This document shows, piece after piece, positions 6,240-34,640 of a stretch of DNA of 34,640 bases (position 1 is its first letter; every line of letters starts with the position of its first letter). Under the pieces are notes generated by a model, which saw only the letters and a list, made by a program, of their open reading frames with translations, was not told the origin of the DNA and ran no database searches. The stretch spans positions 1 to 34,640 of the forward strand of contig JAGRJO010000004.1 in NCBI GenBank assembly GCA_020442725.1, given 5' to 3'. The position numbers were made by a program, and so were the translations under genes. The DNA is from Lysobacterales bacterium (lineage in GTDB: Bacteria; Pseudomonadota; Gammaproteobacteria; Xanthomonadales; Marinicellaceae).

Positions 6240-6532
6240 GGGTTCAGCTCTAATAAGTTTCCACTAAAAGCCGATGCTAAAATCGACTGTTTGTTTTTTT
6301 CAGCTTTACCAAACTGTTTTTCAACTTCCGTTTCAAGCTTTGAAATCAAGTTAAGTTTTTCTTCAACTATTTCAATTATCGTATCCCGAACAACCACTCC
6401 ATGAACGCCTTGATCTCCGGAATAAAGATTCATTGCTTTTTTATCCTGAATGACCCAGCTTGCCGATTCGAGTTTGGCATCGATTTCCAAGCGTGTTTCT
6501 GCTTCTATTTTGTCAGTGGGTGGTGGTGTCAC
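6236..6532 (-). pseudogene. Chimeric type I restriction remnant: HsdR N-terminus fused to HsdS C-terminus
   Basis: The 98-codon open frame starts at GTG (6530-6532). Residues 1 to about 48 (TDKIEAETRLEIDAKLESA, then WVIQDKKAMNLY) match the start of HsdR, the motor-nuclease subunit. Residues about 52-96 (IIEIVEEKLNLISKLE, then KNKQSILASAFSGNL) match the C-terminal conserved helix and SILA-AF-G tail of HsdS, the specificity subunit. The join falls around 6376-6400. An internal deletion removed nearly all of hsdR and hsdS and joined the ends in frame. Neither half keeps catalytic or target-recognition parts, so restriction activity is lost. It may still act as a translated leader, because its TGA overlaps the ATG of the 835-aa gene. 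Confidence 0.8.
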
Positions 6533-6666: not shown

Positions 6667-7161
6667 TATAAATCATTAAAACCACTCAATAATATTCGTC
6701 AAAGAGAAACAATAGCAAACATTCCTACGTTCTGTCAGATATTTCCTAAAATTAAATCATCAAATAAAATATTTGAAGCATTTAATTTTTCAGAAGAAAT
6801 GATTTCCATATTTGAGGGATATGTTAAAAGTGCAATTTAGGAACTTGGTTTTATTTTTACAGTTGCCAATTAATATACAGGCTCTCATAATCGAGCAATA
6901 AGCGATGAAATAATGGCGACTCTCAAATCTTGCAAAATATTGATAACGGACTTTATCCATCAGAGAAAAAGTGTATATTTTGAAACTGGTTTTTCAATGG
7001 GAATGAAAACTCCTATTATTTGGACTTGCAAAGAGGATCATTTAGAAAATCTATCATTTAATACTAGACAATTTTCACATATTGTTTGGACACATGGAGA
7101 GGATTTGAAACAACAAATAAAAAATCGATTAAAGTTATTATTTAATTTCTTAGTTAGATAG
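6667..7161 (+). pseudogene. Decayed nucleoside 2-deoxyribosyltransferase/TIR-like protein gene
   Basis: One reading frame (starting at 6667) stays recognisable across two in-frame stops, TAG at 6838-6840 and TAA at 6871-6873, and ends at TAG 7159-7161. Before the stops it reads KIFEAFNFSEEMISIFEGY. After them come HNRAISDEIMATLKSC, ILITDF, SVYFETGFSMGM, PIIWTC and NTRQFSHIVW. This order (strand-FDEEM, DDEI-A-L, VADFT, GVYFEAGFA-GLG, PVIWTC, FDTRQ-NHIVW) is that of a Rossmann-like family usually annotated as nucleoside 2-deoxyribosyltransferase-like and related to TIR/SLOG NAD-sensing domains. Intact relatives often occur in defence islands. No start codon was found at the 5' end, so the N-terminus is also damaged. 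The open part from 6913 is only the C-terminal half, so a working product is unlikely. Confidence 0.75.
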
Positions 7162-7437: not shown

Positions 7438-10400
7438 ATGACTACTAAACCTCATTTTGACTTTCTCAGAGTATTATCTTTCTTTATTATTTTTCAAGTC
7501 TTTCTATATTCGATTTGTGCAGCTGATGCCTATGAATCAGATGTGGTTGCTGGTGCTTCAAAACCATTCGATTTTGAAAAATTCACTAATCAATTTGAAG
7601 CTGATTATGTAGAAGAAAACCAAGGAATATCAATTATCAATTTTGTTGGTAATTATGACAAAACAATTGATGGAATGCCAAATCATGAGGCTAGACAGGC
7701 TGTAATGCATGAGTTTTTTCGGCATCAGGATGATGATTATGATTTCATTTTTGTTTTTACCCAGTTTGAATTTGATACAGGTGAAGCAACAGCTTTTGCA
7801 AACAGCATTTTTAATGATGTTGAGGGGATAGGCAAAGAACTTTTTGACTACAGAGCAAATTATTCGTCCGGTATACTGCAATCAATAATTGATATGGCAG
7901 ATGTAAACAGGTGGGAGTTTAATCCTGCTAATAGAAATTATGATGCCTTGCTTGATACTGTGATTCATGAATTTATGCATCGTTGGGGAATTTCGGTAAA
8001 GTATATTGATGCAAATGGAGAAGTTAGTAATCGCCTTTTAGGAAGATCTAATAGTCACTGGAGCTATTATTTTAATTCCAACGCATCAGTAATGTATGGT
8101 TCTTTATGGCAAGAAATACAACAAGGCCAATTTCAAACTATTGATACACGTCACTCTTTAAGCCCGCTTGATTTATATCTGGCGGGTTTTATAGATAGAG
8201 ACTCTGTAGCTGACATGTTTGTTATTGATAATGCGAGTCAGGGTCATAATACTGATATTCCTCCTCCTGTTGGAACAAGAATTAGTGGAGAAAAAGAACT
8301 TGTTTCCATTAATGATATCATTGCATATGAAGGACAAAGAATCCCCGATAATGTAAATTCCCAGCATGAGTTTAAGGTAAAGTTTATTTTATTAAAATCA
8401 CCGGATGATGAAATAGATACAATTGCAGTTGCCAATATTTTTACCTTAAGCAAAGAATTCCAAAAAAGATTCCACGCAGAAACACATGGCATAGGCATTA
8501 TACATCTGAATCAAAGCGAAAGTATATTAATTTCAGATCCTGAAGTTTTGGCCTATGTTCCTGGAACGCTTGAGACATTTGACAGCAATCTAGCCAAATC
8601 ATTTATTTTATCTAAAGGAAATTCATGGTGGGCTGATAGAAAGTCCAGCAAAGTTAGAGATACCATCGCAGTAATTAAAGCACTACAACTACTGGTGCAA
8701 GAATATCCTGAGCTCTCTGGAGAACTTGACTCAGCTATTCTTTGGATTAATAACTATCAATGGGAAAATCAAGATGAAGTTGCCTGGATGCTTTCTAGTG
8801 GAGTATTAAATAGTGAAAAGACACAACAGCTTCTTGATGAAATTTATTCTAATGAGGGAAACACAGGTGGCTGGGGTCTGAAGAGCAATGAAAACTCATC
8901 TGTCTATGACACAATCTTAATATTAGATACCCTTGCTCAAGTTCAGGATGATGAGCTGAACCTGAGTGCTGAAACAGCTCAATTTATTTTAAACAATATA
9001 AATGAAGATAGTGGCTCTGCTTATGTGTCAGGTGGTGAAAGCAGTTTGGTATCTTCAGCAATACTGCTAAAACACATTGATAAATTAACATCAAGTATAC
9101 AGATAAAAGACGGCCTGATTCAATTTATCCTAAGCAAAAAAAATCCAGACAACACATTTGGAAACGGAACCGCTTATGAGACAGCTATAGCAATCATTGC
9201 ACTTAAATCTTTGGGCGATGATTCCTACCAACCACAAATTAACTTCTCTAAGTCTGCATTGGGTAGAATGCAAAGTGTGGATGGGTCGGTTCAAGGTAGT
9301 ATTTATTCTACAGCACTTGCAATATCATTAATTAGTGAAAATTCTCTGGCTAATTTGCTGTTTGCTGATAGTGAAATTTCAAGTGCAGAAATCACAGCAG
9401 GAGAGCAAATTACCATAAACTATACTATTGAGAACAATGGTAATGATATTGCAGAAAACATCGAGGTTTCAGTATATAAAAATAGTATTGATACCGGTAA
9501 CCTGTTACAAAACATAATAATACCCTCATTGCCCATATCAGAGCAGGTTGAAAATGAAATTATAATACCCACAGAATCTTTTAGCGGCACTATTGACTTG
9601 TTGATTGTTATTGATGCCAACAACGATATAAATGAGTTCAATGAAGTTGATAATATTCACAGCTTCACAATACATAGCAGAGATGTAGATGACACACCAG
9701 AATTGGTTTTTGACCGGAGTGACTTTCACATATCTCCCACACAGTTCGATTCATTGCCCATTGATATCGTTTCTAACATCACAATATCTAACTTATCGGC
9801 GGTAGAATTGAACAATGTAGAAGTCAGCCTGTCATTACAAGAAATTGATAGCTCCTATACAATTCTGGAAGCACAAACAGTTAATTTACCTCCGCTTTCA
9901 AAACAGCAACTAATATTTAATCATCAAGTTCTTCAAACAACGACAGATATACAGCTACTTTACAAAATTGATCCTGAAAATGCTATTGGTGAACAAAACG
10001 AACAAAATAATAGCCATGTTTTTACTATTGAAAAAATTTCTACAGTTGACCTTGAAGTAAATAACGAAGGGATTGCTGTTCCGAGCCAAATAATGGCTGG
10101 TGAATCCTATGATATCGCATTTCATTTTATTAATAGGGGAACCGAAAGCTCCTCATCTTTTGATATTAGAGTATATGCTGATGGCAACAATGAATCCCAG
10201 CTCATTCATCAATCACAGGTGGCAGAGCTTGCAGCAGGTGGGCAAAATAGTAGAAGTGTCAGTTGGCAACCTTCTTCTGAAGGAGACTATGAGTTAAGGT
10301 TTATTTTGGATGAAAACAACAATGTTGCTGAAACAAATATACTGAATAATGAAGTATCCATACCAGTTCGGGTGTTAGTGAATCAAAACACAAATCTTGG

Positions 10401-22400: not shown

Positions 22401-25400
22401 AATAAGTGGTGAGATTCAAGCTGTAACAGATATAATTTTAGGAAATGATTTTAATATTCACTACAGACTTTCAAATACAGGCAATACAAATTTGACCAAT
22501 ATTCCTGTAACACTTAAATTGCTAAGTACAGACTTACAATCTGAAATCATTGTACAAACAGAAAATGTATCACTCTCTGCAGGGCAAACAATAGAGGAAT
22601 ACATGCAACTGCCTTCACAAAACCTAAATGCAGAGACATATATTCTTGCAATTTATGCTGATTTAAGTCAATCAGGCAACAACCCTTCACAACTTCTTGA
22701 TACACAATTGATTCAGGCTCTGGATGTAACCGGTCCAGTTATTGAAGTTATAAGTCCTCTTGCAGGAAGTATCAAACCGGCAAACATGAGTATTTTGTTT
22801 ATTGTGACTGATATTAATGGAACCGTTGAATCCGTTGAAATGCACTCAACAGAGAATATAACAGGTCTGCCCAATAACTTTAATGTTAATAATATCAATA
22901 ATCAATATGAACATACTGTATATAACCTGGATGAAGGTAATAACCAGATAATAATCACCGCTACGGATAATTTTGGCAACACTACAGAAAAAACATTGAG
23001 TTTCATAGTTGACTCAACTTCTCCGAGTATAGAAATTACGGGAGCAGAAGAAAGCCGACTATATAACCATGCAGTAACAACAGAAGTAATTATATCAGAT
23101 ACAAACTTAATCAGCTCGGAGATACTGCTAAACAGCTCGGTCATATCAGCAACACATGATATTACCGAAGAAGGAAATTACTTCCTTATGGCTCGTGCAG
23201 AAGATTCAGCTGGAAATATAAGTATAGAAAGTATAAATTTCGGTATTGACCTCACGGCACCGCAAATCAATATTAATTTTCCTGTCAATGGCTCAGAAAC
23301 ACAGCATCAGCAAACAGACATACATGGAACAACAGAGCCGGGTTCAACAGTAGTGTTGACCATTTCAGGCTATCAGGTAAATACTCAAGCTGGAACAGAT
23401 GGTAGTTTTGATTTTTATGATGTACCACTACAAAGAGGAAACAACGAAATAAACTTACAGGCAACAGACGATGCCGGTAACCAGAGTCCGAATTCAGTTA
23501 TTGAAATTATATCGATAGAACCTGTAGATATTCATGCACAAATTACCATGTCAGAAACATTCCCGGTTGAAAACAATCTTTTGGCTGAATACAGGCTGAC
23601 GAATAATAATAGTAATCAACACAGCGGGCTTCAAGTTCAGCTTCAAATTTATAATCAAACAAGCACTCAATTGATAGAAACCCAGATTAATACCACCGAT
23701 ATGTCTCCTCTGGAAACAATCGACTTAAACACATCGTTTGGTTTTATTCCTGATATTGAAGACTACAGGCTAGTGCTGAGCATCCTTATAAACAACGAAT
23801 GGCAAATCAAGGATGAAAAAATAATTAGTGCTATTGACACAACAGCACCGCAAATTGCAGTAATTCAACCACAACAGCAGATATATAGTGCGGATTTAAT
23901 AGCATCGATTGATGTAACAGATCAATACTCTCAAATCCAGCAAGTCTCATATGAAATCAACAACTCAGGAAATTGGCAAAACATGGTGCATAAAACGGAT
24001 GCAAATTATATAGCCAATTTACAACTGGCTGATGGCAACCATAGCATCAAATTTTCGGCAACAGATCTTTTTGATAACCGTATGGAGACTACAGAAACAA
24101 TCTTTTTTGTAGATACAACAGCACCACAAATAAATGTCAACTCACCACCAGATGGACTGATAACCAATGATAATGTATTACTGGATTTTGATGTCACAGA
24201 CCAAAACCAGTACCAATTCACCTCACAACTTAATGGTATCAATGTAAACAGTAATGACGAAATCAGTCAGGAAGGAGACTATCTGTTGATTATAGTTGCA
24301 ACCGATGAGGTGCAAAACCAGTCCCAACATGAGACTCGGTTTATTATCGACAAAACGATACCTGATTTGCTCATTACCAACCTGATTGACAACCAGCAAA
24401 TTATTGTCAATGGTATAACGATTACAGGTATCACAGAACCCAATGCGAGCATCAATTTGCAAAGTGTATCCGGAATTAATCAAACAGTCCAAAGTGATGA
24501 CTCAGGTGAATTTCAGTTTACAAATATTTTGCTGATTTCGGGAGAAAATACACTTCAGTTTACAGCAACAGATCAAGCAGGAAACCAAAGTGAAACAGTT
24601 AGCAGGACGATCCATTTTAATAATGTCGGCACTTGTAATGTGTTTGGGTTTAAGCAAGCATCTCCATTCAATGTAATGGTTCTGGAGAACTACACCGGTT
24701 CTTATTCGTCAATAGAAGGCAGGTTAGCAGCAGGTGCCAACATAAATCTCAATGAATATGAAATAGGGCAACAGTTAACAGCAGATAATGCAGAAGATTC
24801 TCTGTTATCTGGAGGACAAATTCGCTATGAAAATGGTCGTTTGCACTACGGCAATATGTTGGCATCCGGGGAAATAAGGGTAACACCAGATGTAATAAAG
24901 AATATGGCACCTGGTACCAACATTATCAGCTATGCCCAGTTGCCCATAGACATACCATATAGCTTCGGACAATTGCAATTGATGTCTAATGCCTTTGTTG
25001 AACAAGAATCTAATGCGAGTTATAGCATTACTGATGGCAATATTCATTTGACAGGAAATTGTCAGGATGAACTACAAATATATAACATACCTATTGCTGA
25101 CTTTGAGACAGTACGAAGCATGTCATATCAATGTCTATCAGAAGAAGGATATATAATAATCAATGTTGAAGGAGAAAATATTGATTTGAAATATAAAGAT
25201 TTAACAAATCTGGAAACCATATCCTCGAGAGTTATATTTAACTTCCATCAGGCACTAAATCTGTATATTGATGATATTATTATCCCTGCAAGCATACTGG
25301 CAACGCAATCTCATGTCAGTAGTAAGCATCCTGATGTTATTTTCGCTAACAATTTTGAGTCTATTCATAAAGGTTTGGTTCAAGGACAACTGTTTGCAAA

Positions 25401-25845
25401 ATCTCTTAATAGTGACACGCAGTTTATGCATCAGCCATTTAGTTGTAATAACATGCTTGAAATCAATGCGGCACCTATCGCTGAAAATCAATTTATTACT
25501 ACCACACCGCGTGAATCGATCAGTTTTACTTTGAAAGTGACAGATGAAACACCAATCAACCTACAATATATTCAAACGACCTCAGTCTCAAGAGGATCTC
25601 TTTCCGGTAGCATGCCAAACTTGGTATATACTCCGGAACAAGGTTATATTGGCCTGGTCAGTTTTGAATATCAGGTTACCGATCAGTATGGAAAAACAGC
25701 AACAGCTACTGTAACTATAGAAGTGACTGATGAAGATGTTTTTGAAGATGAATTAGTAAAAGCTACCAACCACCACCAAATGTTTACCTCAGCACTAATT
25801 ATTTTAGGGACACTTAGCCAAATTATCTTATGGAGAAGAAAATGA
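7438..25845 (+). CDS. Giant exported multidomain protein: metalloprotease-like head, Ig stalk, choice-of-anchor A tail (6135 aa)
   Basis: A signal peptide (about 1-30, hydrophobic VLSFFIIFQVFLYSI) precedes a metallopeptidase-like region with HEFMHRWG at 177-184, a possible third zinc ligand H207 in SHWSYYF, and SPLDLYLAGF behind it. Then come prenyltransferase-like alpha-alpha repeats (about 385-620), five CARDB domains (about 642-1215), a FlgD-like Ig (SPNGDN, about 1222) and a propeller-like region (about 1330-1700). More FlgD-like Igs follow at about 1942, 2662 and 2882, then a long run of Ig and FN3 domains joined by DTTPP-type linkers. A discoidin-like insert lies at about 3885-4030, a second propeller at about 4300-4610, and another CARDB at about 4655. 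The protein ends with a choice-of-anchor A domain (about 5735-6005), a cadherin-like Ig and a membrane helix (about 6115-6132) closed by RRK. Domain limits are read by eye. It is probably an envelope-anchored adhesin or protease projecting from the cell. ATG 7438 follows an in-frame stop at 7423. Confidence 0.88.
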   Translation: MTTKPHFDFLRVLSFFIIFQVFLYSICAADAYESDVVAGASKPFDFEKFTNQFEADYVEENQGISIINFVGNYDKTIDGMPNHEARQAVMHEFFRHQDDDYDFIFVFTQFEFDTGEATAFANSIFNDVEGIGKELFDYRANYSSGILQSIIDMADVNRWEFNPANRNYDALLDTVIHEFMHRWGISVKYIDANGEVSNRLLGRSNSHWSYYFNSNASVMYGSLWQEIQQGQFQTIDTRHSLSPLDLYLAGFIDRDSVADMFVIDNASQGHNTDIPPPVGTRISGEKELVSINDIIAYEGQRIPDNVNSQHEFKVKFILLKSPDDEIDTIAVANIFTLSKEFQKRFHAETHGIGIIHLNQSESILISDPEVLAYVPGTLETFDSNLAKSFILSKGNSWWADRKSSKVRDTIAVIKALQLLVQEYPELSGELDSAILWINNYQWENQDEVAWMLSSGVLNSEKTQQLLDEIYSNEGNTGGWGLKSNENSSVYDTILILDTLAQVQDDELNLSAETAQFILNNINEDSGSAYVSGGESSLVSSAILLKHIDKLTSSIQIKDGLIQFILSKKNPDNTFGNGTAYETAIAIIALKSLGDDSYQPQINFSKSALGRMQSVDGSVQGSIYSTALAISLISENSLANLLFADSEISSAEITAGEQITINYTIENNGNDIAENIEVSVYKNSIDTGNLLQNIIIPSLPISEQVENEIIIPTESFSGTIDLLIVIDANNDINEFNEVDNIHSFTIHSRDVDDTPELVFDRSDFHISPTQFDSLPIDIVSNITISNLSAVELNNVEVSLSLQEIDSSYTILEAQTVNLPPLSKQQLIFNHQVLQTTTDIQLLYKIDPENAIGEQNEQNNSHVFTIEKISTVDLEVNNEGIAVPSQIMAGESYDIAFHFINRGTESSSSFDIRVYADGNNESQLIHQSQVAELAAGGQNSRSVSWQPSSEGDYELRFILDENNNVAETNILNNEVSIPVRVLVNQNTNLGIDENNTTISPDPGLQGQNLHFSIDVFNDSNQDSGEFDIKIFRQSDVGSTNVLLLNLSDNAEIPSQDSRQVEVDIDVGDLVGEHNFIIEIDPEDEIVEYNENDNLAILQHQILKLPDAQANTGSFQLTPSIPVTGENLSVTISVNNIGEQNISSLDVSLYTGNNQNNQQELVESQNIPQLLSGQSSNVVFDFIFPNDNAVDKLIVKIDENNLINEGNENNNEAILLINNQDGSLFVTNTDFSPNGDNIKDETLIVFNVDETSDYKLIIYDNNQQVIKSVESEDFLNTNYGDFLWNGKNDRGIIARDGHYTVKLENSENEVTASVVIHIDTNNSSLFESMKSADSHFSSLNCLFDSSGQLKYSNDGKYLYTSSYRNLNGELIKGLFIIKADGSSIKSILPESIYYSDSGNTRNAEIEFFSVLQNNDIFFILERKINFWTRVQEFYISESATQLIRRISPDIEDSSLRVLTVKDRFAIVDAEGLYQKIYFDGTTPKQVQDVIEDSQAIAEVSSGMIFQRSLFTYPATVSLYFLSYDYNQEPEVFLSDIEIKDNQAFIDSFYKKVSANRNFLAQDDGESVHFYFFHDFSLTKVFDKPVNSADSYGLTSYGELYIFNEDASMSLYNSSGSLLLNTEGFSSIQEFDEFLQNGFSVEVNIQDIDVYVDSSGLIDSYISQKIIDFTDSSDSKQLTFIIENQLFGTFNTPECPIFAICDNWPETVSDVKVTSLNKIITIDYDDLLSPDINVSGSISENIRLSQIQEGRSSLVRATMSTTGVDHFYDINNIESGAISFQLTENISINNSFPYLSIKDEFDNFGIWPKHRKVGIFDSFLISDLGNNTIQYNNCPIEGGTNFIYRSRDNLYADVALKNNEQVIEIRATAFDKSFKKYDIYWSSLASPASQWNLLYSSEYAPNGEIVQNWLPPASGPYSVRVTAYDNAGNQYEDTETISTTSINTPVRNIIVSPQYFSPNGDGVQDEVLIQYDVTDIAEVLVEIQDDSGLTLQTYIREHTTPAQLETIHWDGKDSNGNLLGDGEYKIIVNGINFEVTLDTKAIEAELISGLYGSTYGEFLSLLSEIVLPTRDEIEEQIGTQDYHSHITQIYDEQSEQWQNTQSMENILLDSENLTSSFNSRYRLKVTDKAGNIGYSEIQHPEEIQYRKVGLLKKNEDLNETEEIRFLYRKNKVETANNADESENSFVVDWSTGDKIAYVIQALDYEDIEFIKFKTRYQNGNDIIESESRLVNMLSRTEAADYLRDKYAGDNSNIHNFVDIFVDTGANERKMPVFMIELDKIDFPDTRGYIEVFFEIKKLSRTVHLQSKVKFVSTGNNLKFKNLTFDSILDLQGLPEIAEEAYTNLLMNVRETKGFEYYWVFEEGNNINYLNSSLIRRTSENGNIQSTDMFSEYYIDLTDSYSSRIYALPKPECQVQQQVYWRAETDIGDVIESDVLFSENVFCIEPEMEASFYLGEFCSNNDPGNSPIQFDIKVENIPPESSQLVLIELYNEYDQQLVFSDTNPQIQYDENNNGNYHSVASFNTSLLPNGNYDFRLVTTDQNGNSKSVFERVIINHEPTTNWISYPQPGTKICGNDQIAINAGISNSLGYSSEIYLLTEHSVYGDTLIHQNYRSFDKLSTTGSPVYLSDDFSISSMDGQATLILETHNSSGISYCSSIDIHIDSIVNTTIAINEAFDSELLIFSPNSDNQFDTLGLLNMEAHERLDIQLDLFDINNEEPQFVGILSANTLDVNQVVEFIWDGTFQGNTVVDGEYRIDISITDECGNNQINKFPITIDTTPPVVEFLSPIDGENLNAIQRIAVVINELHPGFNLESRLKVEFLYNGTWNEIDENKQLSYDGSQQVYILQLDWNTTSLPPGSYPLRITSEDVVGNISATQITPVIQEQQNIFWSFSVIPTYISPNADNVKDKTTITFGLNTHSSISVDIFDGQGNRVRNLTDNQQFTPQQHLIEFDGFDDDLNVLPDGTYIVTISATETNNPANTYSLNLEFIVDNSLPQVQWINPDSQIIKNTGFASVSLTESHLLDMQVTNQKLNPSGPEVTVLSTTTTGVFDLLTLESLEETQYQLVAHAQDLAGNTTYNTISYTIDKTPPLINLISPVANSVIGGDSAIVNVTGEITDTNFDYYDISIAPVSNNPVWQTIHTGTELADSGFNIEQSLAVNDGLYLIRLTAYDKAGWQSEQTVEVILDTTAPVSLISQPSNNSTIAANSQVLGTATDDNLDFYTLSYKLSGTTEWKIINIGQTSISSEQLGLISSTLESGDYLIKLSVQDKVGLISNSEISITIDNTPPPSPTNLTAQIVNSNQVLLQWDSVNSQDFAGYIIHRNGERLNQIIFDQTQYTDINLTDGEYIYQVFAQDNAGNISQPDNSVSITIDTTPPTVFIITPANEQRVNRVIDITGNATSLLDFKQFDLYYRNINNAAPGTLITHSPVPVNYGLLGTLDTTFLAQNQQYIIRLEARDNHDNISVDEKIIYVDNVAPAVVLNLTAELQGENSVLLQWTANSETDLAGYLVLQNGVVISGNGTGEISIGNAITDTSLMVENLNDGEHTFHLIAIDITGNYSSLSIPVQQTINTRVPDTIISSPHDGRKFESPILFSATSNDLDIAEISFSYSTDNTNWVLLATDTTEPFQTTLNPVSLGLNYGNIYLQAIATDYSSQTDSTPARITTEYTDITAPEPVNNITASVDGGDINLNWDANSENDLQGYNITRIFNGQSILLTSTPITDTAYLDTNLADGEYSYKIVAIDDFDNSSDATTMSGLQVFSINLNQPFSPILTPQQTQLSGSSVTKEGYIQLVLQNTNGNTALPDMLLTDTYGFNSLPIDLIPDLNILSATHIKENGDKSKIQTINIEQSPVPLIPLNFQVNSVDFTSELSWDAPDTATFGYLPYRNSTPIYPISRVMSGISYQTSSNDYADDRVSDEDPQTVWSPSYSDITDYNPTFIELTFDDKKWITSVEFHWYEDFEQNIYSPSSFQLQYHSSVGWVTIEEIENINQAVIPVTTDKPYLTDKARLLITTPEGVYESIALSEFVVNYQELATTESVSLNETDGIYSYHVTSINNYGFESLASSTVEVSIGDVEPPVEVTLTGQVSGINDVTLNWSSSSSADTAGYWIFRNGQLLIAIDNEQVFNYTDSNLPNGEYTYYIKVVDTAGNLSPASNSYLAQIQQQQLPGIENLVIQAPVSGGSLVLNWDESQSPRFNSYKVYRSLSSSTGYNHIADTTQATYNDQNVENGTRYYFVVTMSDSSGNESPYSNEVSAIPSDLLPPEVPVILSPTTNGNPITIDTNIATIAGTAEPGTNVDLFVNNVYSGSLLTESDYTINRISINGFMFQTAFSDKGDWFAYYDFENLYIKNIITNELKSERLETLNFKWNKEGTHIYVIYYDDDLGGESLAKFDTDLTQTTLLNEDTLSSAVPSPDEQLILYQGESYNPDTGISTEGLWLFDVQSSTKTEIVLSETIATNNMQISWSDNGDYVAFINDAGDSPLYLYDINTQVLTTIATGFEYSSSLTFANGSTQLIYERENLIYQYDISTQNIVELSLPGYNLNSVDMSPNSNHISYKQGCCDIIIYNPETQSTQNIYSSNSDLGQINWNENHGILAVENNSVIKFGFPGSFVFADTMLNSGENHIYVTATDDNNNTSLPSAEILINVEITELADIQLESRNIIISPETALSGTQFVASATVRNSGAIPAMATKLNVFLTNPEGVTLEVIPDRNMVDLQPGEAQSIYMDLGNIVMHGTYILQISADSENSIPENQENNNTAYKTFNVLENNEPTLLLSLAPHQVASQQPVSIFLQLFNPLLEFNGQINLAIKDEQGFPVKIYEPYQINNLLYNQSIEIETDWQTSDIFSGTYIVVANLQDASGNRISEQEEHIIVSSYAEFELAVQIQQNLITQGDNLQFSTAIDYTSGNTTQSGNLIWQVIDSNQQIIHTETRTMPTMTSGFNAIINDFWFAQETGNYQLKIELITNDYQQILTLPFTVLAEEQIPAISGEIQAVTDIILGNDFNIHYRLSNTGNTNLTNIPVTLKLLSTDLQSEIIVQTENVSLSAGQTIEEYMQLPSQNLNAETYILAIYADLSQSGNNPSQLLDTQLIQALDVTGPVIEVISPLAGSIKPANMSILFIVTDINGTVESVEMHSTENITGLPNNFNVNNINNQYEHTVYNLDEGNNQIIITATDNFGNTTEKTLSFIVDSTSPSIEITGAEESRLYNHAVTTEVIISDTNLISSEILLNSSVISATHDITEEGNYFLMARAEDSAGNISIESINFGIDLTAPQININFPVNGSETQHQQTDIHGTTEPGSTVVLTISGYQVNTQAGTDGSFDFYDVPLQRGNNEINLQATDDAGNQSPNSVIEIISIEPVDIHAQITMSETFPVENNLLAEYRLTNNNSNQHSGLQVQLQIYNQTSTQLIETQINTTDMSPLETIDLNTSFGFIPDIEDYRLVLSILINNEWQIKDEKIISAIDTTAPQIAVIQPQQQIYSADLIASIDVTDQYSQIQQVSYEINNSGNWQNMVHKTDANYIANLQLADGNHSIKFSATDLFDNRMETTETIFFVDTTAPQINVNSPPDGLITNDNVLLDFDVTDQNQYQFTSQLNGINVNSNDEISQEGDYLLIIVATDEVQNQSQHETRFIIDKTIPDLLITNLIDNQQIIVNGITITGITEPNASINLQSVSGINQTVQSDDSGEFQFTNILLISGENTLQFTATDQAGNQSETVSRTIHFNNVGTCNVFGFKQASPFNVMVLENYTGSYSSIEGRLAAGANINLNEYEIGQQLTADNAEDSLLSGGQIRYENGRLHYGNMLASGEIRVTPDVIKNMAPGTNIISYAQLPIDIPYSFGQLQLMSNAFVEQESNASYSITDGNIHLTGNCQDELQIYNIPIADFETVRSMSYQCLSEEGYIIINVEGENIDLKYKDLTNLETISSRVIFNFHQALNLYIDDIIIPASILATQSHVSSKHPDVIFANNFESIHKGLVQGQLFAKSLNSDTQFMHQPFSCNNMLEINAAPIAENQFITTTPRESISFTLKVTDETPINLQYIQTTSVSRGSLSGSMPNLVYTPEQGYIGLVSFEYQVTDQYGKTATATVTIEVTDEDVFEDELVKATNHHQMFTSALIILGTLSQIILWRRK
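25832..25838 (+). promoter_or_regulatory. Shine-Dalgarno of the RHS gene, inside the end of the giant gene
   Basis: GGAGAAG lies within the codons for the last residues (WRRK) of the giant protein, with GGAG six bases before the ATG at 25842. Stop and start share four bases (ATGA). Ribosomes finishing the giant gene can therefore start the RHS gene directly. The sequence encoding the anchor's basic tail doubles as the ribosome-binding site. Confidence 0.7.
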
Positions 25846-28800
25846 AATTAGCAAAAAAAATATCACTGCTTTTAGCCCTGGCAATTGCCGCAGGCTTGTC
25901 AGCCCAAAAAATATCAGAGCAGCAAAATGAGCCAGCAGACAAACAAAAAACTCAAAACCTAATGCAACAATGGATGACAGGACTACTTTCTGGTAAAGAC
26001 ATGTCTGGTGTCAGTAAAAGTTACTCACAGCAATTGCAAGGTTCAAAAAAGTCGACGCATCCCTTGGGTAACGACACTCTTTGGGATTTCAATAAAAAGT
26101 ACAGCCAATATCTAAAAGACCTGAACACACTCAAACAAATGGAACAAAAGGATACAGGAGAACAACAATGGCAAAGCAGGATAGAATATCTGAAACAAAG
26201 CTACCAACAGGCAAGAAAATCTCAAATCAAACTTTTAGATGAATTGAAGGCAAAAAAACAATTTCTGTTGGAAAACAATATTGTGCAGGAAAAACTGATA
26301 CTGATTGACGATTTGATAAAAAAGACCAACTCGAGTTTTTCAGCAACCACCATTGAACTCATGCAGGGAGACACCCAAAACAAAATCGCCAGCAAAGAAA
26401 AATGGCATGATTTTCTGATGCAGCAGAAAAAAGTTCACAAGACACAAGTTGAAAAAAGCACAAACATCTCAAACACACCAAAAATATTAAGAAACAGCAC
26501 ACTGCCATACTCCGGCACGAACTACTTTGCTCCCGCGTTGGAATACACCCCGCAAATCACACCGAGTTATGCAAATGAGAATCCGGCACCTCCAACAGCA
26601 GAAGATCTGGGAGACAGCCTAACTATTGAATTGAACGAAGAAATATCTCAACTGGCAGCAGAGTTAGAGCATGACTACATAAAAATCTACAATCATATCA
26701 GACAAAACATTCAGCTTGAATACTATAGTTCCGCCCAAAAGGGTGCAGCAGCCACACTCAAATCACAAGCAGGAAACGACATAGATCAGGCAGCACTACT
26801 TATAGCCTTGTTACGAGTCTCAAAAGTACCAGCCAGATTTGTACAGGGAGTGATACGCCAACCAATAGATGAAGCGATGGCATCAATTGGTTTATATGAA
26901 CCCAATCAGGTACTGATGGCACTGAATCGTGCCGGCATTCCACACACTCCGGTGATTGAAGGAGGGCAAGTTGCCGCAATTGACCGTCACTACACATGGG
27001 TGAGTGCCTATATTCCCTACTCAGGCTATCGAGGAACAGCTGCTGATTTACACAACCGAACATGGATTCCTCTGGCACCGGCAATCAAACAAGACCATCT
27101 TGAGACCATCGGCTATGACTATGGCAACTTTCCAATCGATAGTGATCAACTGGTTAATGAATATTTGATGACGGTACACAACAGCTCCCCGTTACTGTAC
27201 TGGAAAAACCAGGTGACACAAGACCTTGTGCAAAACCATCCAGACATCGATTATGAAGATTTCTTTAACCGGCACAGGCAGGAAACAACTCCGTATAAAC
27301 TTATTCCTGCCTCGCTGCCGTTTCAAGTCATCAGCACTACCAGAGAAAATGCCAAACTGCAAGAGGATCAGATGCAAAGTATAACCTTGCAACTGGGAGA
27401 AAATTCACAATATCTTGATGTTACATTACCAATACCACAAATAGCAGGCAAACGACTCAGTCTATCCTATCAGGGAGCCACAGTTGATGATATAAACATT
27501 ATCAATCAAGCCGGAGGAATGGCACATGTAGAACCCTATCTGGTCAATCTCAGAGCGATAGTCAAAATAGATGGAAGACAAATTGACACCGACAATGCCC
27601 CCTTGCCAATGGCAAGCATGCAAAACCTTAAAATAAGCATCACCAGCCCGATGGGAGTTGAAACATTCAACCGCAACACACTAGCAGGAAACTACCTGAC
27701 ATTGACCGTTTCAATACAGAATGATCACTATCTACCGGATAGCACCCACAGCAACCTTTATGCTGATGAAACCAAAGCCACTCGCATCATGCACAATCTG
27801 GCAAAAAACTACAACAATCACTGGAATCAGGCCGAAAATGAACTAGCATCTGTTATAGATGTTGCACTAATTAAACCGATTCCGTCAATCAGTATTATAT
27901 CGCCGGAATACACTCTGACACAAACTCAAGGGTTGACAACTGCAATGCAATTTGCAGGCATTAGCATTGATGCTGTCAGCAAAAGTTTAGAGGCTATCAG
28001 CAGAAACAACGACCCACAAGCTGCTTATGACTTTTATCGTCTTTCATCATTACACGGGTCATGGTTAGAGTCAGATATTTTTAACAGCCAATGGGCAATT
28101 CATGCCATATCTGCAGATACAGGCATAAGGAAACTGTCAGAAACAGCCTCCATACTGCAACTGACATCTGCAAATCAAAATCTGCTACAATCCAGCAATC
28201 ACCCTCAATACATCAAGGATGAAATCATCAGCCACCTTGAGCAAGGCAGGCATGCGGTTATCGCTGATACAAGCGACATTATTAACACATGGAACGGCTC
28301 ATCATGGCATATCTATGACCCTGACAGCGGACACTCCGGCTATTTTATTTCAGGATATTATGCTGGTGGCCAAACCACCGAAGATCCACATGGCTGGACC
28401 AATACCGAAATATACAATACCCTGATCAACCCCTACAGCGAAGGCAGCAACACCGACCCGCTGTCTGTAACTGATATTGTTATCATTGACTCCAGCAACT
28501 TCCAAAGCGGTACCGTAGACACTTATTTGGAAAAACCCCTGGCTGTGATAGTTGTTGACCAATACAACAACCCTGTTGAAGGAGCAGAGGTTTTTTTCAC
28601 CATTGAATATGGTGCAGGTTTGCTGATTGACCCCGAAGATGGAAACAGAACATCCACCAGCAGTCTCAGCACACACAGCAACAATCTGGGAGTTGCAACA
28701 GTCAACTTCAAAAGAGACCAGCAAACCAGCTTTGTTGGTCTGCTTTATAAAAATGTAACTGATCTCTATCCCTACCGTGTAGGAAGGACCTACATTAGTG

Positions 28801-31800
28801 CCCGGACACCCACTTACTACGGGCTCATCACCTCAAAAGAAGATTTTAGTATTCTGTCCTGGCCGGATGAGGCAGCAACAATTAATTTCACCTGTGTTAA
28901 TGGGTGCTCAAATGCGAGCAACCTGGTTCCACAAGGTACTGAAAGCACAAATATGTACTATATTGTCCAAGATGAGTTTGGCAATGTAGTAGCCAATACC
29001 CCGGTTACTATAAGCACTACCAATGCCACCAATAAAAACGGAATCAACCTGCATGCTGAAAAAGTATTTACCAACATACCCGACACAGCGTCACAAAGTG
29101 TAGGCAGAACATCACCGACAAATCATACAAACGCCCAAAAAGGAAGCCTGGTTTGTGATACATTCTACACAATATATGATTGGCAGAATGAAGTGACAGA
29201 TCCTTTCACCCCCATTTACTCCCAAGCCAAAATTGCCTTGCAAAACAACTGTAGCACAGACGGACTGGGGGCTCCGGATTGTGCAGAGACATCAGTTGTC
29301 TCCACCTCCAGCAACAGCTGGGAAGGATTTAGTGCCTATGCTCCCATAGTTCCTGTATCTCCACATCAACAACAAACTTATACGATTTCCCTGACATCAG
29401 ACAACCTGCCAACAGCACAAATTCAGCAAAAACTGTTTCAATGGGGTCCAGAAGTAACTGATGAAGAAACCTTTATCTGCTATAAACCGTTAGATCCGGT
29501 TGAAGTCAGAATCCATCGTGGCTCAGTCAATTGGGGTCCTTACGGGCTATGGGAGGCAGCAAAGCCCGGTACCAGTATGAGTGTACCCAGACGGATATTC
29601 AATTTTCCGACCTATTTTGAGCAGGGCAAATACTACATCTCGAAACTTCAGGATACCTACAGCTATGGACACGGAGACCTAATACTTGAGCCCACGGTGT
29701 CACAAAACAATCTGCAACTCAATATCAACCCGCAAAATACGGGAACACTAGATATTAGCCTGATACCAGATGGCTATGATACATTCAATTACACCCTGCC
29801 TGCTGAACCATCATTAAACCTCTTTGATCTGGAAATGGTCTTTGAAAGGCCTGAGGCCACAGGAAACCCGACTGATGTTATTAATCTTACTGACTTTATC
29901 TGGAGTGCAGAAATTGAAATCACCTCAATCACACCCAACTCGTTTGAACTGGATGAAAACTTCCGTTTAAAACAACCGGTGAGAATACTGGCTCACTCCT
30001 ATCCGCAAGGATACTCACCCAAAGAAGTTACCTTCAGAATCTACAAGGAACAATCCCTGATAGACGAATCAGCACCGCTTGTGTTTCCACTGGGAGGAGT
30101 TTACGACTACTACTTTGAAACCAGCGAAGCCATCAACCCACAAGCTGACTATCAAGTCGAAGTCATCATGAACAAGGGCACAGACTTTGAAATCAGGTCA
30201 GATAAAGCCTCGTTAGGTGATTTCAGTCAAAAAATTGTCCGAAGAGTGAGCTCTCAGCAACTGGACAGTGCCTTCACCGGTCAGGTTGGAGGTGGAATAA
30301 TTATCGACGATGTGATTCCCAATATTTTGAGAAAGCACACCGAAGTTTATCTCAATGACGCTCTGGTATGTGAAAAAGGCGGCTTTGAGTTTGAACTCAT
30401 ATCCGAATCAGATGTAACCATAGAACTGCATAAGCTGGATGAACATGGAGAACCAACCGGCAATATCACCACCATTGCTGAAGACACCTACTCATCGGGA
30501 ATTTATCAACTCGATGTAGGATTTAATGTGCTGGATGAAGGCAGCTATCAGGTGAGAATATCCGCCACATCACTTATTACCGGTGATATTGAAGATATCC
30601 GCGGTGTTTTTGTCTCATCAGTCAACCAAATGGATACACTTTCTATTGGTCATCCTGTTGTTAAAGGAGTCGATTTGGCAACCGGAGAACTCACATACTC
30701 CAAACAAAACATCTCCATATCGGCACCCGGTACTGACCTTGAATTCATCCATACCTATAGCAATGCCGCTAACCTTGAGATGGGGCCATTAGGTTACGGC
30801 TGGTCACACAACTACATGTCAAGAATCATTGAAAGAGACTGTGGCGTCATTGTAGTCACCGGAACAGATGGTGGAATGACAAGATTCCGTAACATTAATG
30901 GTATCATCAGCCCCATGCGTGGCTACCACTCGGTACTGGAAAAAAATGAAGATGGCAGCTACAGTTTTTACAGTAAAAATGGCACCCACTATCACTACAG
31001 CCCATATCCAAACAGCGGTTGGTGGAATGACTATATCGAAGATACCAACGGCAATCGTCTGACTATCCAATTGCAACAAACCGGGCAATACGCCCCAATC
31101 ATCAAATCCGTTACTGACTCCACTAATAGAAAACTGCACTATCACTATACTGTCCAATCCTTTCAATGTCAGCAAAATGTATGCGGAACCAGCGGACAAG
31201 TCCTAACCCAAATAACAGGGCCAGAACAACTGGAAATTAACTTCGAATACAATGAGTACGGTCAATTAGCATCAGTACAACAATGCATATCCGGTAATTG
31301 CCAGATGAAAGAAAGCTACAGCTACAGACCCAAGGCTAATGAATACATTCTTGATTATGAATCCAATTTGCTATCTGTAGTGCAAGACAACTTCACAAAT
31401 GCCCAAAGAAGTTATGAATATCAGGATATAACCATCAACCTTGATGTATCTGGGTTACCACCATCGACAACACTAGATGTCAAACAAATCCAAAGCATCA
31501 CAGAAACCGATGCCGGGATTACCAGTTTTAACTTTGGTGTAGAAGTTAACGACTTCAACGACACAGCCACCGTTGATCAAAACGGCACTATCAGCAACTA
31601 CACACTCAACGACTACGGAGCAGCAACACAAATCACAACCCCAGCAGGCACTAAAACAATGGACTGGGAAATCAGCGATGAAATCCTGCTGATATCAGAA
31701 ACAGACGAGAACGACCGAGTCAAGAGTTATCAATATGACGACAATGCCAATATCACCTCCGAAACCATAGGCACTATTAGCCAGCAATACACCTATACCA

Positions 31801-34640
31801 ATACCGGCAATACCAAACCCTATATCAAAACACTAGCAGAAAGTCACACCGATTTCAAAGGTAGTGTAATTGAAAACATTTTCGATGCCAAAGGCAACAA
31901 ACTCAGCGAAACCAAAGGTGGTGTCACCATCGAATACGACTACAACTCACAAGGTTTGGCACAATCGGTCAAAGACGGCAACAGCAACACCACTATATTG
32001 CACTATGACAACCACGGTCAACTCTCCGGTGTGACCAACCCTCTGGGTTACCAAACAAGCACCATATGGGATAAATTAGGCAGAAAACTCAGCGAAACCG
32101 ATGCCAACGGCAACACAACAGAGTACACCTATGATGCGGCCAGCCGTATCACCCAAAAACAACTCAACGACCGCATCTGGCAATACCAATACCAGCAAGG
32201 TGGACTGATAAAAACTGAAACCGACCCCAATGGCAATACAACAATTTACACATATGACACCCAAGGTCGGTTATTACAAATTGAAAACGCCGATAGCAAG
32301 ACTTTCAGTTATACTTATGATGCCAACGGCAATAAATTGAGTGAGAAAGATTTTAACGACAACATCACAACATTCCAATACGACCTGGCCAATCGGCTTG
32401 TTACCAAGACCGAGCCTTTGGGTAAGGTGACGACCTATTCGTACGATGGCGTCGGCAATATCTTATCTGAAACCACGACAGAGGCAACAGGTGATCGGAC
32501 GACGAGTTACAGTTATGATCCGCAGAGGTATTTTTTGACAGAAACAACAACAGGAGGGGATGAGGTTACATCAACAATCAGCAGGACTGTGGATGGTGAG
32601 GGAAATATTCTTAGTGAAACCGATGCCAACGGCAATGAAACGCTGTTTGTCTATGATGATTTTAATCGTCTTGTGAGTGAAAACGGGCCAATGGGTTCAG
32701 GCAGAACAATTGTTTATGATGGCAATGGCAATATCACCGAGCAAACTGTTTTTAATAGTACTGAAAATCAGACCCAGGCCAATAGTTTTGACGCCGCCAA
32801 CCGCAAAATGTCCACAACCAACGCAGAAGGTGAGATAACAACATACAGCTATGATGGCAATAACAATATTATTCAGGAAATCATGCCACAGGGTAAAAAA
32901 ACCACATACAGCTACAATGACCTCAATCAAGTCAGTTCCAAAATCGAAACAGCCACAATACCGGCTATCTGGAACTATGACTATGATTTGGCAGGAAATC
33001 TTGAAATAGAAACCTGGCCAAATGGCAATGAGATTGTTACAGTTTATGATGCCCTCAACAGAGTAGTGAGTAAAACTGACAGTATCGGAAGCATCAGCAC
33101 TACCAGCTATGATGGCAATTCCAATGTCTTAAGCGAAACCGATGGCAACGGCAATGAAACCACACACACATACAATGCGCTCAATCAGCGTATCAGCACA
33201 AACAAGCCCGAAGGAAGAAACTACAGCTACACCTATACAGTCTTTGATGAATTACTCAGCGAAACCAGCCCCAATGGCAGGATTAACTACTCTGTGAACA
33301 ACCTCGGACAACGCACCGCAGCCACAGGGCCAAATGAATTTAGTGAAAGCTACAACCGAGATGGCAATAATAATTTGCTGGAATTCACCGACTCCAGAGG
33401 CACGAGTACTGCATATATTGTCAACGCCCTTAATCAAAGAACCTCGCAAACGACCGGCAGTTTCTCAATGACCATGGAATATGATACCCTTGGCAACAAA
33501 ATATCAGGGACCGATTATAAAGGCATAGTCAGTGAGTTTACATACGATAAACGCAACCGCCAACTGACCTTCACTCGTGCAGGGCAGTTACAAAAGACCA
33601 CCGACTACAATGCAGCAGGATTGGTTCAAACCGAAACCGATGCCAACGGCAATGGCACAGTTCATCAATACAACAGTCAATATCACCGCAAACAAACCAA
33701 CCTGCCTGAAAACCAGCTGATAAAATACACCACCAATGGCTTTGGTGACACTCTCACCCAAGACAACCCGGGGGCTAACGATATAACAAATACATATGAT
33801 GCCAGAAGAAGACTGACATCAATAACCAACGGCAATAACGAAACCACAAGTTATGAATACGACCTCAATGACAATCGCACAGCCATCATCAAACCCAAAG
33901 GCAACCGCATAGAATTTGGCTTTGATGCAGCGAATCGATTAACAAGTGTTAAGAATATTGGAGAAAACATCGAAACGGTTTATGCTTATGACAACCGGGA
34001 TAACCTAACCAGCATCACCGATGCTGAAGGTAAGGAAACTGCTTTCGAATTTGATAACCGCAACAGAAAAACATCCAAGACTTATCCTGATGGCGAAGAA
34101 GTGACATACTCCTACGACCCCAATGGTAATTTGGAAACAATGAACTTACCCAACGGAACAGCAATAACTTTCGGATATGATATTTTGAACCGCAAAACCA
34201 GTGAAAGCTACAGCGGAGGATATGGTAGTGCAAATGTCACCTATGCACTGGATGCCAATGGCAATGTTGAACAAATTAATGAGACTATTGATGGTGAGAT
34301 TTTTACCACAACTCAAGGCTTTGATGACTTGGAAAGAATGACCTCCAAAACCGATCGTTATGGAAACAGCTTTCAGTTTTCCTATGACCCCAACGGCAAC
34401 AGAAAAACTTTCAAAGACCATGAAAACAAGCTCACCAATTACACCTTTGATGGCTTAAATCGCCTAAAAAAACTCACACACGCCGGTGTTGGTACATTCA
34501 ACTGGAGTTACAACATAGCCGGATTGACAGAAACCATTGATTATCCCAATGGAGCATCAGTTGATTATGAATACGATTTGGCTAACAGAATTTCAAGTAT
34601 TTATAACAAGATGTCAGGAGCAAATATCACAGAGCATTTG
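25842..34640 (+). CDS. Exported RHS/YD-repeat protein with degenerate transglutaminase-like domain (partial, at least 2933 aa)
   Basis: The frame is open from ATG 25842 to the window edge, so the C-terminus is missing. A clean signal peptide (MKLAKKISLLLALAIAAGLSA, cut after residue 21) precedes a coiled-coil region (about 80-180). A transglutaminase-like domain (about 290-420) follows: AGNDIDQAALLIALLRVSK at 310-328, RHYTWVSAY at 382-390 and WIPLAP at 408-413. The usual catalytic Cys is not seen (GND), the His is shifted or replaced (H383-Y384), and the Asp is Ala412. A TWNGSSWHIYDPDSGHSGYFISG segment (about 816-838) and an invasin-like Ig (about 895-965) follow. The RHS start (GHPVVKGVDLATGELTY, about 1603) leads into many YD repeats from about 1960 on (for example DANGNTTEYTYDAASRIT). 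RHS repeats fold into a hollow shell around a C-terminal, often toxic, domain; that part is not visible. The gene is translationally coupled to the giant gene upstream. Confidence 0.9.
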   Translation, partial: MKLAKKISLLLALAIAAGLSAQKISEQQNEPADKQKTQNLMQQWMTGLLSGKDMSGVSKSYSQQLQGSKKSTHPLGNDTLWDFNKKYSQYLKDLNTLKQMEQKDTGEQQWQSRIEYLKQSYQQARKSQIKLLDELKAKKQFLLENNIVQEKLILIDDLIKKTNSSFSATTIELMQGDTQNKIASKEKWHDFLMQQKKVHKTQVEKSTNISNTPKILRNSTLPYSGTNYFAPALEYTPQITPSYANENPAPPTAEDLGDSLTIELNEEISQLAAELEHDYIKIYNHIRQNIQLEYYSSAQKGAAATLKSQAGNDIDQAALLIALLRVSKVPARFVQGVIRQPIDEAMASIGLYEPNQVLMALNRAGIPHTPVIEGGQVAAIDRHYTWVSAYIPYSGYRGTAADLHNRTWIPLAPAIKQDHLETIGYDYGNFPIDSDQLVNEYLMTVHNSSPLLYWKNQVTQDLVQNHPDIDYEDFFNRHRQETTPYKLIPASLPFQVISTTRENAKLQEDQMQSITLQLGENSQYLDVTLPIPQIAGKRLSLSYQGATVDDINIINQAGGMAHVEPYLVNLRAIVKIDGRQIDTDNAPLPMASMQNLKISITSPMGVETFNRNTLAGNYLTLTVSIQNDHYLPDSTHSNLYADETKATRIMHNLAKNYNNHWNQAENELASVIDVALIKPIPSISIISPEYTLTQTQGLTTAMQFAGISIDAVSKSLEAISRNNDPQAAYDFYRLSSLHGSWLESDIFNSQWAIHAISADTGIRKLSETASILQLTSANQNLLQSSNHPQYIKDEIISHLEQGRHAVIADTSDIINTWNGSSWHIYDPDSGHSGYFISGYYAGGQTTEDPHGWTNTEIYNTLINPYSEGSNTDPLSVTDIVIIDSSNFQSGTVDTYLEKPLAVIVVDQYNNPVEGAEVFFTIEYGAGLLIDPEDGNRTSTSSLSTHSNNLGVATVNFKRDQQTSFVGLLYKNVTDLYPYRVGRTYISARTPTYYGLITSKEDFSILSWPDEAATINFTCVNGCSNASNLVPQGTESTNMYYIVQDEFGNVVANTPVTISTTNATNKNGINLHAEKVFTNIPDTASQSVGRTSPTNHTNAQKGSLVCDTFYTIYDWQNEVTDPFTPIYSQAKIALQNNCSTDGLGAPDCAETSVVSTSSNSWEGFSAYAPIVPVSPHQQQTYTISLTSDNLPTAQIQQKLFQWGPEVTDEETFICYKPLDPVEVRIHRGSVNWGPYGLWEAAKPGTSMSVPRRIFNFPTYFEQGKYYISKLQDTYSYGHGDLILEPTVSQNNLQLNINPQNTGTLDISLIPDGYDTFNYTLPAEPSLNLFDLEMVFERPEATGNPTDVINLTDFIWSAEIEITSITPNSFELDENFRLKQPVRILAHSYPQGYSPKEVTFRIYKEQSLIDESAPLVFPLGGVYDYYFETSEAINPQADYQVEVIMNKGTDFEIRSDKASLGDFSQKIVRRVSSQQLDSAFTGQVGGGIIIDDVIPNILRKHTEVYLNDALVCEKGGFEFELISESDVTIELHKLDEHGEPTGNITTIAEDTYSSGIYQLDVGFNVLDEGSYQVRISATSLITGDIEDIRGVFVSSVNQMDTLSIGHPVVKGVDLATGELTYSKQNISISAPGTDLEFIHTYSNAANLEMGPLGYGWSHNYMSRIIERDCGVIVVTGTDGGMTRFRNINGIISPMRGYHSVLEKNEDGSYSFYSKNGTHYHYSPYPNSGWWNDYIEDTNGNRLTIQLQQTGQYAPIIKSVTDSTNRKLHYHYTVQSFQCQQNVCGTSGQVLTQITGPEQLEINFEYNEYGQLASVQQCISGNCQMKESYSYRPKANEYILDYESNLLSVVQDNFTNAQRSYEYQDITINLDVSGLPPSTTLDVKQIQSITETDAGITSFNFGVEVNDFNDTATVDQNGTISNYTLNDYGAATQITTPAGTKTMDWEISDEILLISETDENDRVKSYQYDDNANITSETIGTISQQYTYTNTGNTKPYIKTLAESHTDFKGSVIENIFDAKGNKLSETKGGVTIEYDYNSQGLAQSVKDGNSNTTILHYDNHGQLSGVTNPLGYQTSTIWDKLGRKLSETDANGNTTEYTYDAASRITQKQLNDRIWQYQYQQGGLIKTETDPNGNTTIYTYDTQGRLLQIENADSKTFSYTYDANGNKLSEKDFNDNITTFQYDLANRLVTKTEPLGKVTTYSYDGVGNILSETTTEATGDRTTSYSYDPQRYFLTETTTGGDEVTSTISRTVDGEGNILSETDANGNETLFVYDDFNRLVSENGPMGSGRTIVYDGNGNITEQTVFNSTENQTQANSFDAANRKMSTTNAEGEITTYSYDGNNNIIQEIMPQGKKTTYSYNDLNQVSSKIETATIPAIWNYDYDLAGNLEIETWPNGNEIVTVYDALNRVVSKTDSIGSISTTSYDGNSNVLSETDGNGNETTHTYNALNQRISTNKPEGRNYSYTYTVFDELLSETSPNGRINYSVNNLGQRTAATGPNEFSESYNRDGNNNLLEFTDSRGTSTAYIVNALNQRTSQTTGSFSMTMEYDTLGNKISGTDYKGIVSEFTYDKRNRQLTFTRAGQLQKTTDYNAAGLVQTETDANGNGTVHQYNSQYHRKQTNLPENQLIKYTTNGFGDTLTQDNPGANDITNTYDARRRLTSITNGNNETTSYEYDLNDNRTAIIKPKGNRIEFGFDAANRLTSVKNIGENIETVYAYDNRDNLTSITDAEGKETAFEFDNRNRKTSKTYPDGEEVTYSYDPNGNLETMNLPNGTAITFGYDILNRKTSESYSGGYGSANVTYALDANGNVEQINETIDGEIFTTTQGFDDLERMTSKTDRYGNSFQFSYDPNGNRKTFKDHENKLTNYTFDGLNRLKKLTHAGVGTFNWSYNIAGLTETIDYPNGASVDYEYDLANRISSIYNKMSGANITEHL

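What the first reader, a model, noticed from the sequence alone, without database searches (positions are those of the whole stretch)
7438..34640. Two coupled giant genes: choice-of-anchor surface protein plus RHS shell protein
A 6135-aa exported, probably envelope-anchored multidomain protein and an exported RHS protein of at least 2933 aa share one promoter and a four-base ATGA overlap. RHS proteins are usually paired with VgrG, TcA-type or secretion partners. Pairing with a metalloprotease-headed, choice-of-anchor stalk protein is not an arrangement I know as a described system. Inference: the stalk protein displays, processes or delivers the RHS product, for example its zinc protease head cleaving the RHS toxin or a target surface.
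Basis: partly seen in the sequence, partly recalled or inferred. Interest (0 to 1): 0.75.

Follow-up and report, generated by a model that had tools for sequence, protein, structure and literature searches.

The report
Giant surface partner of RHS toxins
A marine bacterium (a relative of Marinicella) carries two huge overlapping genes, one for an RHS-shell toxin of a known class and one for a giant exported partner protein; the same pair occurs side by side in many unrelated bacteria, which points to an undescribed two-protein way of displaying or delivering RHS toxins.

Summary
ORF 7438-25845 (6135 aa) and the RHS ORF from 25842 (2933 aa, cut by the contig end) overlap by ATGA.

The RHS protein belongs to a class named in 2012 (PMC3482391): signal peptide, inactive transglutaminase (TG) domain, Ig, RHS, variable toxin. 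Complete relatives (~3500 aa) end in unrelated toxin domains followed by immunity genes. The window's own genome holds RHS tips with the same junction and phospholipase or lipase toxins plus immunity-like genes; one overlaps the window's 3' end.

New here: the giant is its constant partner. Its zincin-toroid head lies 17-20 kb upstream of the TG module on the same strand in 20 of 20 testable genomes of the order (4 more end at contig breaks). The pair recurs in Burkholderiales, Alcanivorax and Acidobacteriota MAGs. A reduced toroid + TG pair exists in Firmicutes. The choice-of-anchor A domain is a separate gene between the two in three Burkholderiales.

18 of 23 carriers tested lack T6SS TssB; all have T2SS secretin. 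The partner system appears undescribed in the papers I could search: a new variant of a known kind.

The parts
7438..25845 (+). giant partner gene, 6135 aa
   Evidence: orthologues have open frames of mostly 5,565-7,011 aa where complete
7438..7530 (+). predicted signal peptide of the giant (aa 1-31)
   Evidence: hydrophobic window aa 7-31, sequence
7585..8607 (+). zincin-like head (about aa 50-390)
   Evidence: alignment A1, invariant H177 E178 M180 H181 H207 M219; no Pfam family
7966..7980 (+). HEFMH zinc-binding-like motif (aa 177-181)
8620..9357 (+). alpha/alpha-toroid domain (terpene-cyclase/TED-like fold)
   Evidence: Prenyltrans in 10/12, TED_complement in 5/12 members; PDB squalene-cyclase-like hits 3.9e-16
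9367..11127 (+). CARDB Ig-like array
   Evidence: PF07705 6.9e-52
24667..25443 (+). choice-of-anchor A / pAdhesive_15 domain
   Evidence: TIGR04215 1.9e-39, PF20597 5.6e-29; separate gene in three Burkholderiales
25465..25719 (+). Big_9 / tandem-95 domain
25780..25842 (+). short C-terminal hydrophobic stretch ending WRRK (putative anchor)
   Evidence: sequence; below the 1.6 hydropathy cut-off
25831..25834 (+). GGAG, likely ribosome-binding site of the RHS gene
25842..25845 (+). ATGA overlap of the two genes
   Evidence: the same 4-base overlap in several relatives
25842..34640 (+). TG-RHS toxin gene, 2933 aa, 3' end missing
   Evidence: complete orthologues about 3450-3730 aa
26457..28631 (+). 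conserved TG module (about 700 aa) found also without RHS in Firmicutes
   Evidence: alignment A3, 43 sequences; AlphaFold pLDDT 88.6; TG fold 3isr Z 11.6
26778..26780 (+). Asp codon where active transglutaminases have the catalytic Cys
28539..28724 (+). Big_1 Ig-like domain
   Evidence: PF02369 0.007, invasin-like match
30669..30887 (+). DUF6531 (entry of the RHS shell)
   Evidence: 1.5e-10
31941..34220 (+). RHS/YD repeats
   Evidence: PF05593 3.8e-100
34251..34377 (+). segment repeated (98%) at the end of contig C154, beside a Tle1-type toxin tip; likely cause of the contig break

Best explanation
A two-partner polymorphic-toxin operon that does not depend on T6SS. The downstream gene makes a Sec-exported RHS toxin: an enzymatically dead transglutaminase-fold module of about 700 aa, an Ig domain, an RHS shell that should enclose the toxin, and an exchangeable C-terminal toxin whose immunity gene follows. 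The upstream gene makes a giant exported Ig-stalk protein with a zincin head, an alpha/alpha toroid and a C-terminal anchor. Most likely the giant is the surface carrier: it holds the RHS toxin through a contact with the TG module, presents it to neighbouring bacteria, and a contact event releases the toxin into the target. The outer membrane is probably crossed by T2SS. Shown: the pairing, toxin and immunity features in relatives, the inactive TG site, co-inheritance. Inferred: surface location of both proteins, physical contact between them, the T2SS route, release, and any role of the protease.
For: Adjacency in 20/20 testable genomes of the order, head to TG 17.2-19.8 kb, same strand; a long ORF directly upstream of the TG-RHS gene in other classes and phyla with the head found there. 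Distances of the two proteins correlate at r = 0.90 over 30 pairs (best of 5000 shuffles 0.35; species history is not removed). Toroid without protease upstream of TG in 8 of 9 subtype-2 pairs. Firmicutes pairs: toroid protein ending SPKTGD + TM (sortase-type) followed by a TG protein. Toxins and immunity: Tle1 7e-38 and 1.3e-39, Lipase_3 1.3e-4, DUF6765 1.1e-7, ankyrin and SUKH immunity; only 4 of 105 C-terminus pairs similar. T6SS TssB absent in 18 of 23 carriers, GspD in 23 of 23. Precedent: an RHS bacteriocin of Xanthomonas lost activity without T2SS (PMC7259588). The 2012 survey suggests the inactive TG domain anchors the toxin by binding peptides.
Against: No experiment. T2SS is common in this order, so its presence does not discriminate. 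The C-terminal anchor varies and is weak in the window protein. The window's own RHS gene lacks its 3' end, so its toxin is inferred from relatives and from the contigs C154 and C401.
Confidence: 0.5

Rival explanations
1. The giant is a processing partner: its zincin head cleaves the RHS protein (or the giant itself) to free the toxin.
For: HExMH with further invariant residues in all 12 aligned heads; in the order sample full-length heads were always paired with TG-RHS where testable.
Against: Subtype 2 and the Firmicutes pairs keep the toroid but lack the head, so cleavage by it is not needed for the pairing. RHS toxins are known to be released by self-cleavage inside the shell (established for T6SS Rhs and Tc proteins).
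Confidence: 0.15
2. The giant is an adhesin or receptor-binding protein that brings cells together and works alongside a separately secreted RHS toxin, without carrying it.
For: Many Ig/CARDB/FlgD_ig domains and a choice-of-anchor A/adhesive domain; gene coupling.
Against: Co-inheritance of giant and TG module across phyla and conservation of toroid + TG even without RHS suggest a direct link.
Confidence: 0.25
3. The pair is an ordinary surface-protein operon (cell-wall or biofilm function); the RHS part is not a toxin in this species.
For: The 3' end is missing in the window; Firmicutes versions lack RHS.
Against: Same-genus and same-family genes end in toxin-like domains with coupled immunity genes; tips with phospholipase toxins in the own genome.
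Confidence: 0.1

Closest known systems
Inactive-transglutaminase RHS polymorphic toxins (Zhang et al. 2012, PMC3482391)
   Same: Signal peptide, TG domain with lost catalytic residues, optional Ig, RHS repeats, variable toxin, immunity genes; assigned to Sec/T2SS export.
   Different: That survey names no partner gene for this class; here a giant zincin-toroid-Ig protein is a constant upstream partner, and the conserved TG module is about 700 aa, larger than the TG domain.
WapA of Bacillus / CdiA-CdiB systems
   Same: Exported polymorphic toxin with immunity gene, T6SS-independent (from general knowledge).
   Different: WapA has its own cell-wall domain and CdiA a TpsB transporter; neither has this partner. 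No TpsB-type domain was found in the giant.
Bacterial teneurin-like proteins (PMC13018210)
   Same: YD-shell toxins, many with a signal peptide, variable toxin and immunity gene, delivery unknown.
   Different: The word transglutaminase does not occur in that paper and no giant partner was found in the passages read.
TANFOR toxins of Bacteroidetes (PMC7073777)
   Same: Sec-exported polymorphic toxin often beside a large secreted repeat protein.
   Different: Different leader domain, T9SS context, other neighbours.
Xanthomonas Bcn-A (PMC7259588)
   Same: RHS antibacterial protein, activity T2SS-dependent, immunity gene.
   Different: 1398 aa, several small accessory ORFs, no giant partner.

Membership tests
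[quoted passage not shown]
   hydrophobic N-terminus after basic residues in the RHS protein; no dedicated signal-peptide predictor was available
Polymorphic toxin with inactive transglutaminase leader | Transglutaminase domain with lost catalytic residues | tested here: met
   PF01841 1.1e-9; Cys replaced by Asp; fold match 3isr Z 11.6, rmsd 3.4, 152 aligned
Polymorphic toxin with inactive transglutaminase leader | RHS array followed by a variable toxin domain | tested here: inconclusive
   RHS met; the toxin end lies beyond the contig; met in relatives
Polymorphic toxin with inactive transglutaminase leader | Immunity gene downstream | tested here: inconclusive
   beyond the contig; present in relatives and beside tips C154 and C401 of the same genome
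T6SS Rhs effector | PAAR or VgrG-linked N-terminus and a T6SS in the genome | tested here: not met
   no PAAR in P0002; TssB not found in G000 (74.5% complete) nor in six relatives of its family, absent in 18 of 23 carriers
Tc toxin (TcB/TcC) | SpvB/TcdB-type N-terminal domains and a TcA partner | tested here: not met
   no such Pfam match in either protein
Two-partner CDI system | TpsB/POTRA transporter partner and TPS domain | tested here: not met
   no such match in either protein

The most novel reading that the evidence does not exclude
A previously unrecognised delivery apparatus for Sec-exported RHS toxins: a giant zincin-toroid-Ig carrier whose partner is a dead transglutaminase module shared by proteins with and without an RHS shell, in Gram-negative and Gram-positive bacteria.
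Probability: 0.4. Interest if true: 0.8.

Novelty: new variant of a known kind. Interest (0 to 1): 0.62.

Why it matters
How Sec-exported RHS toxins without T6SS, Tc or TPS partners are displayed and delivered is open; a 2026 study of teneurin-like toxins says no obvious delivery machinery is known for them (PMC13018210). A conserved, testable partner gene, and a conserved toroid + TG core from Firmicutes to Acidobacteriota, gives a concrete candidate.

Tried and rejected
Conserved upstream helper genes: none found beside the giant in 12 relatives. Small ORFs before the giant in three genomes match no Pfam or NCBIfam family.

The choice-of-anchor domain as the defining trait: rejected, absent from the Marinicella giant C-terminus tested.

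Gene fusion as strong evidence: in Pseudomarimonas arenosa the head lies in one open frame of 9908 aa that also holds the RHS gene, but another frame holds stops and a TGATG just after the giant's C-terminus, so a one-base mutation or sequencing error could explain it; not counted. Apparent fusions in Dokdonella BIN16 and Tahibacter aquaticus are stop-free overlapping frames of GC-rich DNA, rejected.

A genome-contig scan with the window head alone and a viral-contig scan with the head alignment found nothing. The head was not folded: the sequences allowed for folding gave no alignment for it. Foldseek whole-model TM-scores were low; only the TG part has a clear match.

Exceptions to the pairing: G083 had TG hits but no A1 hit, and in G280 the toroid lies downstream.

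Full report
Observation. The window is the whole contig C358 of a draft genome (2.38 Mb, 413 contigs, 74.5% complete). Two genes fill 7438-34640: a 6135-aa ORF and an RHS ORF that starts inside its stop codon (ATGA, 25842-25845) and runs off the contig. Named twins of genomes in the same genus and family are Marinicella species and a MAG labelled Alcanivoracaceae, so the organism is a Marinicella relative in the broad Xanthomonadales group; this placement is an inference from those names.

The RHS protein. It has a signal-peptide-like N-terminus, a transglutaminase-like domain (1.1e-9), a Big_1 domain, DUF6531 and 13 RHS repeats. In the alignment with 13 relatives the catalytic Cys position is Asp in nearly all (GNDVDQA). 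An AlphaFold model of the 725-aa module (43 sequences, pLDDT 88.6) matches a bacterial transglutaminase-like protein at residues 25-305 (3isr, Z 11.6, rmsd 3.4, 152 aligned). This is the class called inactive-transglutaminase polymorphic toxins in PMC3482391, which listed it under Sec/T2SS export with no signature neighbour gene.

Toxin and immunity. Complete relatives are about 3500 aa. After a conserved junction of the form DP..G....PPSLHRYxYAxxNPTxxIDPxG they end in 288-410 aa that are unrelated to each other in 101 of 105 pairs. Some match known toxins: Tle1 phospholipase, DUF6765, weak URI nuclease. Immunity candidates follow, often overlapping by four bases; ankyrin and SUKH proteins are among them. 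In the window's own genome contig C154 holds the same junction, a Tle1 toxin (7e-38), three small exported-looking genes as immunity candidates (two of them near-copies), and the start of another tip that is 98% identical to window 34251-34377. Contig C401 holds a Lipase_3 tip with a DKNYY protein. So the contig break is probably caused by repeated tips. That C154 or C401 continues the window gene is not shown.

The giant. Its head carries HExMH, invariant in 12 relatives, then an alpha/alpha toroid, then Ig-type domains and a choice-of-anchor A domain. In Undibacterium, Duganella and Pseudoduganella the choice-of-anchor A domain is a separate gene between giant and RHS gene (6e-41 to 1e-44).

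Do they belong together? In 398 genomes of the order, full-length heads occur in 24; the TG module lies on the same contig and strand 17.2-19.8 kb on in all 20 that can be tested, and the other 4 are cut by contig ends or incomplete. In named genomes of other groups (Burkholderiales, Alcanivorax, a Kangiellaceae MAG, Acidobacteriota and Deltaproteobacteria/Myxococcota MAGs) a long ORF usually precedes the TG-RHS gene and the head is found in the same genome. Distances of heads and TG modules correlate at 0.90 over 30 pairs; species history is not removed. MAGs labelled as different phyla are each other's nearest in both proteins, which suggests transfer as a unit or mislabelled bins. A second subtype has a toroid protein without the protease head upstream of a TG protein in 8 of 9 cases. 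In Ruminococcus and relatives a 1489-aa toroid protein with a sortase-type end (SPKTGD) precedes a TG protein of about 950 aa without RHS. The core of the pairing is therefore toroid + TG module.

Mechanism. T6SS TssB was absent in 18 of 23 carriers, including all seven of the window's family, while T2SS secretin was present in all. An RHS bacteriocin in Xanthomonas needs T2SS for activity (PMC7259588). I favour the giant as surface carrier or display stalk for the RHS toxin (confidence 0.5), over an independent adhesin (0.25) or a toxin-processing protease (0.15). Shown are gene pairing, domain content, toxin polymorphism and the dead TG site. Location, contact, export route and release are inferred.

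Novelty. The toxin class is known; the constant giant partner, its subtypes and its span were not found in seven searches of the open literature, which do not cover most subscription journals.

Noticed in passing
window 2515-2757 (-) and 6236-6532 (-): Fragments of type I restriction genes: HsdM N-terminus (PADLOC 1.1e-14) and HsdS C-terminus (1.2e-10), flanking two overlapping unknown genes (3732-6239 and 2809-3735), so a decayed or interrupted defence locus.
   Followed up: partly
window 6913-7161 (+): An 82-aa ORF similar to the end of a TIR effector (PADLOC 5.2e-5), just upstream of the giant gene.
   Followed up: no
window 1180-2448 (-): 422-aa protein with N-terminal hydrophobic segments and a C-terminal stretch resembling nuclease domains (ECKYRGDY); no convincing Pfam family.
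   Followed up: no
L065 (G000:C58): A different RHS type in the same genome with two RHS tips separated by small genes.
   Followed up: partly
C-termini of giants in L078-L081, L085, L092, L104, L119; also L068: Recurring motif (I/L)F.(D/N)GF(E/D) near the C-terminus of exported proteins, also as IFANNFES in the window giant; may be a sorting signal.
   Followed up: no
L052 8510-8980, L054 8965-9513, L057 1318-1809: Small exported-looking proteins of 156-182 aa directly before the giant in three genomes of the order, no family match; possible third component.
   Followed up: partly
L118 6295-9960: Thermincola MAG: TG module followed directly by a C-terminus that looks like a nuclease toxin, without RHS, then a 134-aa gene.
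   Followed up: no
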